Below, in pieces: positions 41,181-44,346 of a stretch of 64,000 nucleotides of DNA. How positions within the stretch are numbered: the stretch's first letter is position 1; each line of letters opens with the position of its first letter. Location: assembly GCA_005804885.1 (NCBI GenBank), contig SYOX01000190.1, positions 1 to 64,000 on the forward strand, in the 5' to 3' direction. Source of the DNA: Pseudomonadota bacterium. GTDB lineage: Bacteria > Myxococcota_A > Bradymonadia > Bradymonadales > GCA-2716585. The position numbers and the translations under genes are program-made. The notes under the pieces are model-generated. The model was not told the origin of the DNA. It was given only the letters and a program-made list of their open reading frames with translations, and did no database searches.

Positions 41181-41222
41181 AAGAAAAATAGGAGGCACGC
41201 TTGCCGTCATCAAGCGTGCCTC
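41181..41222 (-). terminator. Strong intrinsic terminator of the tRNA unit
   Basis: Perfect 12-bp stem (GAGGCACGCTTG at 41192-41203 with its complement at 41211-41222), 7-base loop, followed on the minus strand by CTATTTTTCTT (41181-41191). It begins four bases after the tRNA-Val 3' end. Confidence 0.92.
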
Positions 41223-41297: not shown

Positions 41298-41449
41298 GGG
41301 ACCGTGGGGTTGGAGGCGTGGATAAGGTCCGGTCGCTCATAAGCCCAGCGTGTTGCCTCTACACCATCCGATTCGGAGTCGGAGGGAGAATCGAACTCCC
41401 GTGACTGGGTTGAAGTCTGCGACCTTGGGGGTGCCTCCGGGGCGGTCCT
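41298..41449 (-). ncRNA. tRNA-shaped RNA with halves in permuted order (permuted tRNA or Y-RNA-like tRNA mimic)
   Basis: On the minus strand, 5' to 3': CCCAG (anticodon-stem 3' strand, 41405-41409), TCAC, T-arm GGGAG-TTCGATT-CTCCC (41384-41400), acceptor strand TCCGACT (41377-41383), three bases, acceptor strand AATCGGA (41367-41373), TG, D-arm GTGT-AGAGGCA-ACAC (41350-41364), G, CTGGG (41344-41348). CCCAG pairs with CTGGG and TCCGA with TCGGA, closing a tRNA four-way junction whose acceptor ends in a loop; the A2-C71 position is a mismatch. The anticodon stem continues outward as GGTCGC/GCGACC (41419-41424 with 41331-41336), GGAGGC/GCCTCC (41433-41438 with 41312-41317) and GGACCG/CGGTCC (41443-41448 with 41299-41304). 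T-loop and D-loop have the bases needed for the elbow contact. Pairings are seen; function is inference. Confidence 0.65.
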
Positions 41450-41600
41450 GGATAAACCTGATGAGCATCAACCTGATCGCCCGTGGGCCTCCGTTCCGGC
41501 AAGAATCGGAGGCGATCTGGTGATAAGCCAGACCGGCGAGCCTGAACCTGAGCGCGCGGTGGAAGGCCGCGCCGATAAGCCGTGAACCTGAGCCTTGCTC
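41450..41600 (-). other. Structured leader with repeated TCAGGTT and TTATC boxes
   Basis: The minus-strand sequence 5' of the tRNA-shaped RNA holds four TCAGGTT boxes (plus-strand AACCTGA at 41455, 41470, 41545, 41585) and CTTATC or TTTATC boxes (plus-strand GATAAG/GATAAA at 41451, 41522, 41574; a further one inside the RNA at 41321). Hairpins include TCTGG-CTTATCA-CCAGA (41516-41532), GCGCGG-CCTTCCA-CCGCGC (41554-41572), and a two-part stem GATCG/CGATC plus CCTCCG/CGGAGG (41475-41517). No protein is encoded. A TTGACA at 41636-41641 on the minus strand could be the -35 box, but its -10 partner is poor. Confidence 0.45.
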
Positions 41601-41704
41601 ATTGGCCAGCAGAAGGTCGGACCTGGGCGCGGCGCTGTCAACCGGGCGCCTTCAGGGCGCCGCGCCAGGGCGCAATTTTTCCTGGGCGTCGAGGGAAGGA
41701 GGGG

Positions 41705-42496
41705 TCAGCCCTTGAGGGGGCGCAGGATGAAGTCGACCAGGGGGTCGGAGATGCGGCGCTCGGCGTCGACGTCGATGGCGTTGGCGCGGGCGCGGGCGCG
41801 CTTGACGGCGATCATCAGGCGGTCGACCTGCTCGATGCTCTCGACCTTCTGGCGCGGCGAGAGCATGCCGGTCCAGTCGTGGGCGCGGATCTCGCCGACG
41901 GGCTCCTCGATCTCGACGATGTCGATCTGGGCGGGGTGCTCCTTGGTGGCCTCGTGCATGACGTTGTACTTGCGCGTGCGCTGCTTGCGGATCGTCACGA
42001 CCGGCTCGGCCCGCAGGACGTTCTTGTGGTCGGCGCCCGGGTCGGGCTGCCACAGGCGTACGGGGTCGAAGGTCGGGGCGGCCTCCAGGATCGCGCGGAC
42101 GTCGCGCAGGCGTTTTTCGAACTGGAGCAGGAAGGTCGCCGGGACGTCGCGGGCGATGACCTCGTCGTCGATGACGATGTCGGCGCGGGCCCTCGTGTTG
42201 GCCTCGTCGATCTGGTAGCTGACGTCGAGGGCCTTGCCCATCGCCTTGAGGGCGTCGCCGAGGACCTCGTGGACGGTCGTGACCAGGCGAGTCTCGGCCT
42301 CCAGGCGCTCGCCGGCGCTCTCGCCGCGCTGCTCATCGACGGAGAAGGGGCGGAAGGTGCGCCGCATCCCCGTAAAGTGCCCCTGGCGCTTGTCGAACAT
42401 GGATCTGGCCTCGCTGCGGGCGCGGTCGGCCTCCCCCTTGCGCTCCTGCTCGACGGCCAGCAGCTCGTGCAGCTTCGTGGTCTTCTTCTCGGTCAT
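41705..42496 (-). CDS. Hypothetical helical protein upstream of the tRNA locus
   Basis: Soluble protein of 263 residues, mainly charged helices. It opens KLHELLAVEQERKGEADRAR and ends with a helix of the form VDRLMIAVKRARARANAIDV; a central HPAQIDIVEIEEPVG looks like a beta hairpin. It resembles, from memory and at low certainty, uncharacterised proteins of about 260 residues in actinobacteria that share the HPAQ segment and the C-terminal AVK-AR-AN helix. No catalytic motif seen. AGAGGATCCC precedes the ATG. The next thing downstream on its strand is the structured RNA and tRNA-Val, about 100 bases after its stop. Confidence 0.7.
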   Translation of the reverse strand: MTEKKTTKLHELLAVEQERKGEADRARSEARSMFDKRQGHFTGMRRTFRPFSVDEQRGESAGERLEAETRLVTTVHEVLGDALKAMGKALDVSYQIDEANTRARADIVIDDEVIARDVPATFLLQFEKRLRDVRAILEAAPTFDPVRLWQPDPGADHKNVLRAEPVVTIRKQRTRKYNVMHEATKEHPAQIDIVEIEEPVGEIRAHDWTGMLSPRQKVESIEQVDRLMIAVKRARARANAIDVDAERRISDPLVDFILRPLKG

Positions 42497-42722: not shown

Positions 42723-43892
42723 ATGTCGGAGCGGGCGGCGGCGAGAGAGGGCGTGTTCAGGATCGGGCCAGGCGAGATCGTGGCGATGGCGGCGGCGCTG
42801 ATGGCGGCGTGCTGCGTGCCGGGCTTCCCAGGCGATCTGGAGGCGCCGACGGATCGCGGCGATCGAGGGGGTGAGGGGGTCGCGGGCGAGCCCGATCCGT
42901 CGACGCCGCAGGCTCGCGCCGTGGACGCGGCGGTTCGGGGGCTCGCGCCGCGCGGCGGGCCGGGCTTCGCGCTGGCGATCGTGGAGGACGGGGAGGTGGT
43001 CTTCAAGCGGGGCTATGGGCTGGCGGACGTGTCCTCGGGGGCGGCGATCACGCCCAGGACGCCCTTCCGCCTGGCCTCGGTGAGCAAGCCGCTGACGGCC
43101 ACCGGGGTGCTGGTGCTGGTCGAGCGCGGGGATCTGGCGCTGTCCGATCCGGTGTCGAGGCACCTGGCCGCCTTCCCTTATGGTGACCGGATCACCGTCG
43201 AGCACCTGCTCCAGCACACCTCGGGCTTGCCGCACTACGAGGATCTGCCGGAGCGCTTCGAGCGAGACAGGCCGACGAACGCGGACATGCTCGACTTCCT
43301 GGCGCAGAGCCGGCCGAGGGTGCACTTTGGCCCGGGAGAGCGCTTTGATTACAACAACCTGGCCTACGATCTGCTCGCGCTCGTGATCGAGGCGGCCTCG
43401 GGTCAGCCCTTCGCGCGCTTCATGCGGGAGGCGGTCTTCGGGCCGCTGGGGATGCGGGACACGCGGGTCATCGTGGCCGGCGAGCGCATCCCTGGCCGGG
43501 CCATCGGCTACCGGCTCGGGCGCAGGGGGGTCGAGGTCGACGACGACGATCCGCTCAACAACCTCGTGGGGGCCGGCGGGATCGCCTCGACCCTGGACGA
43601 CCTGCTCCTCTTCGAGCGGGAGCTGCGGCGGCCCTCGCTGCTGACGCCGCAGACCTGGGCGCAGGCGATGCGGCCAGGGCGGCTCAAGGGCGGCGGTCGG
43701 ACGGAGTATGGCTACGGGCTTGAGATCGTGGAGGAGGACGGGGTGGTGACCGTGCAGCACGACGGCTCGTGGGTGGGCTTCAACCACGACTTCCAGGCCG
43801 TGCTCGAGGATGGGGACGCGACCATCCTGCTGACCAACGCGGACTTTGATCTGGACGACATCCTCGAGGCGGCCCTCGACGCCGAGCCTTGA
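42723..43892 (+). CDS. Beta-lactamase-fold serine hydrolase (class C / penicillin-binding-like)
   Basis: Protein of 389 residues with an N-terminal export segment containing a Cys pair (MAACCVPG, possible lipoprotein). The beta-lactamase/transpeptidase fold shows SVSK (SxxK) near residue 120, YNN (YxN) near 212, and HDGSWVG in place of KTG near 345. Such family members are mostly esterases or D-aminopeptidases rather than antibiotic-degrading enzymes. The start at 42723 is preceded by AGGAGGGAGG. The long antisense frame 42333-43973 is a shadow of this gene. Confidence 0.87.
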   Translation: MSERAAAREGVFRIGPGEIVAMAAALMAACCVPGFPGDLEAPTDRGDRGGEGVAGEPDPSTPQARAVDAAVRGLAPRGGPGFALAIVEDGEVVFKRGYGLADVSSGAAITPRTPFRLASVSKPLTATGVLVLVERGDLALSDPVSRHLAAFPYGDRITVEHLLQHTSGLPHYEDLPERFERDRPTNADMLDFLAQSRPRVHFGPGERFDYNNLAYDLLALVIEAASGQPFARFMREAVFGPLGMRDTRVIVAGERIPGRAIGYRLGRRGVEVDDDDPLNNLVGAGGIASTLDDLLLFERELRRPSLLTPQTWAQAMRPGRLKGGGRTEYGYGLEIVEEDGVVTVQHDGSWVGFNHDFQAVLEDGDATILLTNADFDLDDILEAALDAEP

Positions 43893-44019
43893 CGGGCGGC
43901 GCGGCCGGGTGTTTGATCGAGCCCGCGCGCCGCCGGTCGGCGACCTCGTCTGCCTCCTGCCCGTGGCGGTCATCGGGCTGGACGTTCATCAAGCGCGCCG
44001 CGTCGTCAAGGAGAGGTTC

Positions 44020-44346
44020 ATGTATCAGTGGCAGCAGTTGACGGTGTCCCTCGGCGCGTTGGCGCTGACGCTCAACGAGCTTGAGCTTGAGCACTGGGAG
44101 ATCAGGCAGGTCGTCCCGCTCGATGGGATCAAGGCGATCGTCCTGGCGCGAAAGTCGGCCACCTCCTACGAGGTTCGCGAGGCGGTCGAGCGCTCGCTCA
44201 AGACCGCCGAGCCGACCTGGATCGCGGAGGCCCGGGAGATCGCCCGGTCTGGCCGCAAGATCGAGGCCATCAAGTACGTGCGCGAGCAGACCGGGATGGG
44301 CTTGAAGGAGGCCAAGGATTACGTCGAGTCGGAGTTCCAGTGTTGA
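44020..44346 (+). CDS. Small protein with ribosomal L7/L12 C-terminal-like domain
   Basis: Protein of 108 residues. An N-terminal strand-rich half (YQWQQLTVSLGALALTLNELELEHWEIRQVVPL) is followed by ARSGRKIEAIKYVREQTGMGLKEAKDYVE, the helix-turn-helix hairpin typical of the L7/L12 C-terminal domain, which in ribosomes recruits GTPase factors. Free-standing proteins with this hairpin are common, but their role is unknown. The ATG at 44020 has AAGGAGAGG upstream; the longer frame to 43846 starts inside the serine hydrolase gene. Confidence 0.75.
   Translation: MYQWQQLTVSLGALALTLNELELEHWEIRQVVPLDGIKAIVLARKSATSYEVREAVERSLKTAEPTWIAEAREIARSGRKIEAIKYVREQTGMGLKEAKDYVESEFQC

What the first reader, a model, noticed from the sequence alone, without database searches (positions are those of the whole stretch)
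41298..41449. tRNA halves in permuted order at the tip of a long extended helix
Seen: the 3' half of a tRNA (anticodon-stem strand, variable TCAC, T-arm, acceptor strand) precedes the 5' half (acceptor strand, TG, D-arm, anticodon-stem strand) with three bases between. The strands that should pair do so (CCCAG/CTGGG, TCCGA/TCGGA), D- and T-loops look real, and three further nested helices (6 bp each) prolong the anticodon stem. A normal-order tRNA cannot be built from either half with its flanks. Known: permuted tRNA genes are described in algae and archaea, and the YrlA class of bacterial Y RNA has a tRNA-mimicking module at the end of a Ro/Rsr-binding stem. Inference: this is one of these two, or a new class. 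The acceptor mismatch (A2-C71), no encoded CCA and no standard bacterial splicing route make the tRNA-mimic reading more likely than a decoding tRNA.
Basis: partly seen in the sequence, partly recalled or inferred. Interest (0 to 1): 0.93.

Follow-up and report, generated by a model that had tools for sequence, protein, structure and literature searches.

The report
Permuted tRNA-mimic RNA beside DUF7873
A stretch of bacterial DNA encodes an unrecognised structured RNA that carries a tRNA look-alike with its two halves in swapped order; relatives of it, nearly always beside the same protein of unknown function, occur in many bacteria and phages, so it looks like a widespread RNA-protein machine that has not been named.

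Summary
Window 41409-41344 (minus) holds a 3' tRNA half followed by a 5' half, nested in longer helices, between a DUF7873 gene and tRNA-Val(GAC). Comparison shows a conserved DUF7873-plus-RNA locus. In type A (Actinomycetota, Chloroflexota, Myxococcota, Armatimonadota, a cyanobacterium, phages) an RNA of about 350 nt carries two permuted tRNA modules at the tips of long helices; 152 of 160 DUF7873 loci have it by descriptor or covariance model, and 32 of 34 modelled pairs covary. The window is type B, a paralogue: DUF7873-B, an RNA with one recognised module, then a canonical tRNA, in 7 of 7 loci. U33 is not conserved, so decoding is unlikely. It fails YrlA tests: scores below Rfam's cut-off, no Ro/TROVE in this genome. 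A third of type A acceptor loops start N-CCA. Most likely a DUF7873-bound RNA offers tRNA-like elbows and acceptors to tRNA-handling enzymes, as scaffold or decoy. Existence and structure of type A are well supported; function is inferred. The window module alone scores within the range of tandem-tRNA controls; its membership rests on synteny and type B relatives.

The parts
41705..42496 (-). DUF7873 protein, subfamily B (263 aa)
   Evidence: Pfam PF25283, E 2.3e-69; AlphaFold2 mean pLDDT 92, no PDB fold at E<=0.001; subfamily B relatives 59-65% identical
41450..41640 (-). 5' part of the type B RNA (boundary guessed, no mapped start); holds a block CAGGTTGATGCTCATCAGGTT (41475-41455) with a close counterpart in L252
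   Evidence: comparison of type B loci by eye; no sigma-70-like promoter found
41298..41449 (-). extended helix with permuted tRNA module at its tip (the finding)
41401..41409 (-). 3' strand of anticodon-like stem and variable loop
41384..41400 (-). T-arm GGGAG TTCGATT CTCCC
   Evidence: GTTCGA invariant in the 7 type B loci
41367..41383 (-). acceptor hairpin (5 bp with 7-nt loop, or 7 bp with one mismatch and 3-nt loop)
41350..41364 (-). D-arm GTGT AGAGGCA ACAC
41344..41348 (-). 5' strand of anticodon-like stem CTGGG; runs on into an internal loop and the nested helices
41224..41297 (-). canonical tRNA-Val(GAC), directly 3' of the RNA; RNase P cleavage at its 5' end would set the 3' end of the RNA (inference)
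   Evidence: ARAGORN and Rfam; a canonical tRNA lies here in 7 of 7 type B loci
41192..41222 (-). intrinsic terminator-like hairpin after tRNA-Val

Best explanation
The window holds a type B copy of a two-component locus: a DUF7873 protein and, next to it, a structured noncoding RNA that carries tRNA look-alike modules with the halves in permuted order (T-arm, acceptor hairpin, D-arm) at the tip of a long helix that replaces the anticodon arm. SHOWN: the module, its conservation and covariation in type A, its link to DUF7873, and in type B its place directly 5' of a canonical tRNA. INFERRED, most likely mechanism: DUF7873 and the RNA form an RNP; the RNA is transcribed on its own, or (type B) as the leader of the tRNA, whose RNase P cleavage releases it; the module presents an elbow and acceptor minihelix, but no anticodon, to a tRNA-handling enzyme (processing, CCA-adding or modifying enzyme, or a tRNA-attacking nuclease) and so tethers or titrates it. 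In type A, where a third of the acceptor loops begin N73-CCA, the loop may be opened by RNase P and a 3' processing enzyme, as proposed for two-piece tmRNA. I put 0.95 on a real conserved type A RNA, 0.9 on the window being a member of the wider family, and about 0.3 on the scaffold or decoy role as stated.
For: DUF7873 lies immediately upstream in the window and at the second copy of this genome, which has permuted modules and a 102.4-bit match to the RNA model R1. 121 of 160 DUF7873 loci hold at least one descriptor module within 600 nt (70 of 80 genome, 51 of 80 viral; 58 with two); controls 0, 1, and 2 in five shuffles. R1 gives 45 bits or more near the gene in 149 of 160 loci (31 of 38, 69 of 70, 49 of 52; 30 of the 160 are its training rows), 152 by either method, against at most 30.1 bits in 43 control loci, most with single or tandem tRNAs. 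In 377 genomes of the phylum 17 match R1; 16 are among the 24 with DUF7873, each with a match within 0.5 kb of the gene. 95 consensus pairs, 74 with two or more Watson-Crick types, on 42 of 50 rows; 32 of 34 pairs with double changes, covariation 0.681 against 0.215 in shuffles and at most 0.117 in slid structures. Type B: 7 of 7 loci are DUF7873-B, RNA, canonical tRNA, with the module's T-loop 99 nt (six) or 101 nt (one) before the tRNA; helices next to the anticodon-like stem sum to 47.0, above all 2000 base shuffles (mean 34.9, max 46.0). L252, a type B RNA, matches R1 full length at 43.0 bits. N-CCA begins the acceptor loop in 40 of 94 and 23 of 98 modules; CCA background 1.7%. Beside DUF7873 and frames overlapping it, no protein family was shared by more than about 10 of the 160 loci. 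Three of five phage records looked at have the locus in a tRNA array.
Against: The window module alone gets 21.8 bits from R1, inside the range of the controls (up to 30.1); five other type B loci get 21-31 bits, and phages L245 and L246 27.5 and 29.8. Single-sequence folding is not significant. No transcript, binding or processing data. The loci were found through the protein; only searched the other way, with strict filters: G418 matches without DUF7873 at the cut-off, G294 has a second, partial match (43.9 bits) away from its gene, and eight DUF7873 genomes show no match. Eleven of 160 loci lack an R1 match. A normal-order tRNA reading that joins the 5' half of module 1 to the 3' half of module 2 exists in places (22.5 bits at C173; 34.5 bits in L237), though covariation is within modules. 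N-CCA is absent in most modules and in the window. Viral loci include near-duplicates.
Confidence: 0.6

Rival explanations
1. It is a YrlA-type Y RNA that works with a Ro/Rsr (TROVE) protein to target a nuclease.
For: Same architecture as described for bacterial Y RNA, which superposes on tRNA with a circular permutation (PMC11472068, passages); type A module 2 of L084 gets 33.4 bits from YrlA.
Against: Below the gathering score of 69 and not better than tandem tRNAs (39-44 bits in L010-L014); no YrlA match at E<=10 in the window; no TROVE in the genome, 83.6% complete; 1 of 9 DUF7873 genomes among 95 relatives has TROVE; 20 of 50 elsewhere, about 340 kb away in the one whose positions I compared (L084).
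Confidence: 0.08
2. It is a permuted tRNA gene, matured through a circular intermediate into a decoding tRNA, as in algae and archaea.
For: Halves in permuted order with good arms; RtcB ligase present in the genome; N-CCA at the 3' half in part of type A.
Against: U33 in 17 of 94 and 34 of 97 modules only; a long covarying helix in place of the anticodon loop; type B acceptor stems mostly of 3-5 bp.
Confidence: 0.04
3. The RNA is a cis-acting 3' UTR element of the DUF7873 mRNA (for example autoregulation by tRNA-like feedback).
For: Descriptor modules lie mostly 25-300 nt 3' of the protein match on the same strand.
Against: In L075 and L215 the RNA is on the opposite strand, and in L127 and L232 it lies before the gene; the type A consensus ends in a terminator-like hairpin of its own.
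Confidence: 0.15
4. A two-piece tmRNA-like RNA: the permuted modules are cut in the acceptor loop, given a CCA end and aminoacylated.
For: N-CCA enrichment; the permuted two-piece tmRNA precursor might be processed by RNase P and tRNase Z (PMC3985003, passage).
Against: No tmRNA match at the RNA in ten loci or at L084; the window module lacks CCA and a full acceptor stem; no test of a tag frame was made.
Confidence: 0.2
5. A relic of tandem tRNA genes or a chance fold.
For: Permuted order arises trivially between tandem tRNAs, which get 39-44 bits from YrlA and up to 30.1 from R1; weak folding z.
Against: Covariation in helices outside the tRNA part, conservation across phyla, link to DUF7873.
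Confidence: 0.05

Closest known systems
YrlA, bacterial Y RNA (Rfam RF02553)
   Same: tRNA-like module in circularly permuted order, closed acceptor hairpin, anticodon arm replaced by the stem of the RNA (partly recalled)
   Different: DUF7873 instead of Ro/TROVE nearby; type A has two modules; N-CCA in a third of the acceptor loops; scores below the Rfam cut-off; some phage copies in tRNA arrays
Permuted tRNA genes of algae and archaea
   Same: 3' half before 5' half with a short intervening sequence (1-74 bp in the review PMC3978253, passage)
   Different: no conserved U33; long conserved helix beyond the anticodon stem; two modules in one RNA; partner protein
Two-piece (permuted) tmRNA
   Same: permuted tRNA-like domain; CCA after the 3' half in part of the loci
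   Different: no tmRNA match; two modules; DUF7873; no tag reading frame sought
GOLLD and ROOL large RNAs
   Same: large structured RNAs of bacteria and phages (abstract start in a search listing only; their nearness to phage tRNAs is recalled)
   Different: no Rfam match to them in ten loci; protein partner and permuted tRNA modules

Membership tests
YrlA (RF02553) | covariance model score at or above 69 bits | tested here: not met
   window: no match at E<=10; L084 33.4 and 23.1 bits; 0 of 57 relatives over the cut-off
YrlA (RF02553) | Ro/Rsr (TROVE) protein in the genome | tested here: not met
   0 in own genome, 83.6% complete; 1 of 9 DUF7873 relatives; 20 of 50 DUF7873 genomes; adjacency compared for L084 only
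YrlA (RF02553) | permuted tRNA-like module with closed acceptor loop | tested here: met
Permuted tRNA gene | functional anticodon loop with U33 after processing | tested here: not met
   U33 not conserved in type A; the window has T at that place but a long helix instead of a loop
Permuted tRNA gene | circular intermediate and religation at the anticodon side | not testable with these tools
   needs RNA-seq
Two-piece tmRNA | tmRNA model match | tested here: not met
   no tmRNA match at the RNA in ten loci or at L084
Two-piece tmRNA | tag reading frame | not tested
   -
Two-piece tmRNA | CCA end and aminoacylation | tested here: inconclusive
   N-CCA in 63 of 192 modules; aminoacylation not testable
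DUF7873-linked permuted RNA (type B) | DUF7873-B, RNA with permuted module, canonical tRNA in that order | tested here: met
   window and 6 other loci
DUF7873-linked permuted RNA (type A model R1) | R1 score above tRNA controls | tested here: not met
   window 21.8 bits, controls up to 30.1; of the other six type B loci only L252 (43.0) is clearly above

The most novel reading that the evidence does not exclude
DUF7873 and its RNA form a new kind of RNP in which two tethered tRNA mimics, one mostly with A73 and a 3-bp D-stem like that of class II tRNAs, the other mostly with U73, are cut by RNase P and a 3' processing enzyme into a multi-piece RNA with free CCA ends that are aminoacylated, giving bacteria and tRNA-rich phages a paired, anticodon-less charged tRNA device; type B is a one-module paralogue coupled to an ordinary tRNA gene.
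Probability: 0.15. Interest if true: 0.97.

Novelty: categorically new. Interest (0 to 1): 0.9.

Why it matters
It would add a widespread RNA-protein family that annotation misses: in the phage and plasmid records looked at the protein is 'hypothetical' and the RNA is a blank or, in Klebsiella phage FBKp24, overlaps a 'tRNA-Sup'. The protein also occurs in phages of Gordonia, Arthrobacter, Rhodococcus, Rhizobium, Klebsiella, Vibrio and cyanobacteria (73 records); the RNA was looked for, and modules found, in five phage records and one plasmid. It suggests that the permuted tRNA fold, known in bacteria from Y RNA and two-piece tmRNA, has been put to use with another protein; it gives DUF7873 a likely substrate and makes questions about phage tRNA arrays and tRNA-directed defence testable. 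I found no account of it in an open-access library: searches for DUF7873, permuted tRNA with bacteria, actinobacteria or phage terms, Y RNA mimicry and large phage RNAs.

Tried and rejected
BLASTN of the window RNA in 95 genomes gave the locus itself and seven matches of 28-45 bases. Rfam at the gathering and at a lax threshold found only tRNA-Val and noise. Folding energy was not decisive. A group I/II intron reading (permuted exon) was dropped: no Rfam intron match at E<=10. A decoding tRNA was dropped on U33. PADLOC, PHROGs and NCBIfam gave no match to three DUF7873 proteins, PDB sequences only chance matches, the fold search nothing at E<=0.001. Nearest-isotype scoring of modules was weak (Leu 34 of 77 for module 1, Gly 21 of 97 for module 2) and is not used. 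Whether N-CCA follows CCA-encoding neighbour tRNAs was suggestive only (15 of 22 modules against 20 of 48, spurious modules left in). Rows dropped before counts: 8 of 50 rows of A3 (L089, L092, L095, L103, L112, L146, L151, L160) before as misaligned or differently laid out, although R1 later found the RNA in six of them; A4 took 30 of the 42 kept rows. Loci without R1 at 45 bits: L089, L128, L160, L171, L185, L202, L205, L220, L221, L231, L236; L128, L185 and L205 have a descriptor module, and L202, L231 and L236 have 0, 199 and 207 nt after the protein match. L241 counts as found but matches only over model positions 33-95, about 1 kb from the gene.

Full report
WHAT IS THERE. On the minus strand of the window, 41409-41344 encodes the 3' half of a tRNA followed by a 5' half: CCCAG, TCAC, a T-arm, TCCGACT, CCG, AATCGGA, TG, a D-arm, G, CTGGG. 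Three 6-bp helices prolong the anticodon-like stem, and RNAfold of 41298-41449 returns them with the tRNA-like tip; in a longer fold the outermost is lost. The stretch ends where tRNA-Val(GAC), 41297-41224, begins, and a terminator-like hairpin follows that tRNA. Upstream, on the same strand, 41705-42496 encodes a DUF7873 protein (PF25283). Folding energy alone would not convince: 8 of 200 shuffles fold as well.

A SECOND COPY IN THE SAME GENOME. A descriptor script for permuted tRNAs, run on fetched regions of the window's genome and relatives, found a second case at contig C173. There two permuted modules, one found by the script and one by eye (later also by R1 at 30.6 bits), follow a gene whose end looked DUF7873-like; the family search confirmed it (C173:30796-31515). 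DUF7873 was found in 9 of 95 genomes searched.

THE LINK TO DUF7873 ACROSS BACTERIA AND PHAGES. A DUF7873 alignment brought in the best 80 of 339 loci from named genomes (actinomycetes, ktedonobacteria and other Chloroflexota, Myxococcota, Armatimonadota, one cyanobacterium) and the best 80 of 136 from viral contigs. In the 600 nt after the protein match the descriptor finds 179 modules; 121 of 160 loci have at least one and 58 have two. Controls: 0 on the opposite strand of the same stretches, 1 in upstream windows of the same size, 8 in 3 kb further downstream, 2 in five dinucleotide shuffles of all stretches. A covariance model of module 2 with its helices (R1) gives 45 bits or more near the gene in 149 of 160 loci: 31 of 38 without a descriptor hit, 69 of 70 genome loci with one, 49 of 52 viral loci (51 with one, and L202 with no sequence after the match). 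30 of the 160 are training rows. By either method 152 of 160 have the RNA. In 43 control loci, most with single or tandem tRNAs, the best score is 30.1 bits. The reverse search, R1 in 377 genomes of the phylum, gave 17 genomes at E<=1e-6; 16 are among the 24 genomes with DUF7873, and each of these has a match within 0.5 kb of the gene. Against: G418 matches without DUF7873 at that cut-off, G294 has a second, partial match elsewhere, and eight DUF7873 genomes show no match under the strict filters. In a few loci the RNA lies on the other strand (L075, L215) or before the gene (L127, L232), so it seems a unit of its own and not merely a 3' UTR. Among ORFs of 100 aa or more in the 160 loci, nothing but DUF7873 and frames overlapping it was shared by more than about 10 loci.

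STRUCTURE. Type A is a two-armed RNA. On 42 of 50 aligned rows RNAalifold gives 95 pairs, of which 74 show two or more Watson-Crick types: one long helix tipped by module 1, a second long helix tipped by module 2, and a terminator-like hairpin. For module 2 and its helices, 32 of 34 pairs have changes on both sides; 92.9% of cells pair against 69.0% in shuffles and at most 46.9% in slid structures; covariation 0.681 against 0.215 and at most 0.117.

TYPE B, THE WINDOW'S OWN KIND. DUF7873 proteins 59-65% identical to the window's were found in six more genomes. All seven loci have DUF7873-B, then an RNA with a permuted module, then a canonical tRNA: Val(GAC) four times, Gly(GCC), Asp(GTC), Glu(CTC). 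The module's T-loop lies 99 nt before the tRNA in six and 101 nt in one. The five genomes seen also carry a type A protein elsewhere. Helices next to the anticodon-like stem together exceed all 2000 base shuffles, though singly p is 0.03-0.25. Six of seven acceptor stems are short, 3-5 bp, with a 7-nt loop (9 nt in L279); L252 has 7 bp. In MFE folds of the 240 nt before the tRNA the full tip appears in the window, L250, L252 and L253, in part in L278 and L279, and not in L251, where it was read by eye. L252 matches the type A model over its full length at 43.0 bits; the window gets 21.8 and the other five 21-31, so for the window the case rests on synteny and on these relatives.

WHAT IT IS NOT. 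U33 is found in 17 of 94 first and 34 of 97 second modules and the anticodon loop has become an internal loop of a long helix: not a decoding tRNA. It is not a member of YrlA by the tests made: scores stay under the cut-off and a Ro protein is absent here and in 30 of 50 other genomes with DUF7873. That bacterial Y RNA superposes on tRNA with a circular permutation is reported in PMC11472068 (passages); that Rsr and Y RNA work with PNPase in Deinococcus, and that YrlA might inhibit an anticodon nuclease, is said in PMC7790460 (passages). So it may work like YrlA without being one. No tmRNA match was found at the RNA.

HOW IT MAY WORK. The acceptor loop begins with N-CCA in 40 of 94 and 23 of 98 modules; the CCA background in the same stretches is 1.7%. 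N73 is A in 74 of 94 first modules and T in 62 of 98 second modules. In the Klebsiella phage both modules have ACCA and in the Rhizobium phage the module found has CCCA. This fits a 3' end that was, or still is, made like that of a tRNA; the permuted two-piece tmRNA precursor might be cut by RNase P and tRNase Z (PMC3985003, passage). Of five phage records looked at, three have the locus in a tRNA array (Arthrobacter phage Mimi, Gordonia phage Phendrix, Rhizobium phage RHph_TM30) and two do not (Klebsiella phage FBKp24, Pseudanabaena phage Pam2). Jumbo-phage tRNA arrays are discussed as a counter to host tRNA cleavage (PMC7824862, passages). From this I infer a DUF7873 RNP that offers tRNA elbows and acceptors to a tRNA enzyme, as scaffold or decoy. 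DUF7873 itself gives little clue: high-confidence model, no known fold at E<=0.001, no match in PADLOC, PHROGs or NCBIfam. That the protein binds the RNA is not shown.

NOVELTY. The module type is known; the RNA, its partner and its two-module plan are not, as far as these searches show (open-access papers only). I therefore rate the system, not the fold of the module, as categorically new; 'new variant of a known kind' would be the choice of someone who gives the YrlA likeness more weight.

Noticed in passing
G000:C146:526-653 (L048, minus): tRNA-Arg(UCG) of the window's genome has a 54-nt insertion in the anticodon loop at about the canonical intron position (ARAGORN -i); several relatives have the same tRNA uninterrupted (query 1-35 abutting 90-128, for example in G002, G003 and G010). 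Too short for a group I intron (recalled), origin unknown.
   Followed up: partly
G000:C175:61793-61931 (L047:994-1132): A tRNA-Leu(UAG)-like gene with a 53-nt insertion, beside another odd tRNA-like stretch at about L047:720-850; both hold the short motif GCCTACAAGC.
   Followed up: no
   Followed up: partly
L245:4018-4097, Klebsiella phage vB_KpM_FBKp24: The annotated 'tRNA-Sup-TTA' overlaps the 3' half of permuted module 2, so it is probably a misreading of this RNA.
   Followed up: partly
G418:C539:10511-10651: R1 match of 47.3 bits in a genome without DUF7873 at the cut-off; possible RNA without the protein, or a diverged protein.
   Followed up: no
window 43846-44346 (+): ORF with a partial ribosomal L7/L12 C-terminal domain near its C-terminus.
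   Followed up: no
window 41657-41673 (+): Terminator-like hairpin on the plus strand between DUF7873 and the RNA.
   Followed up: no
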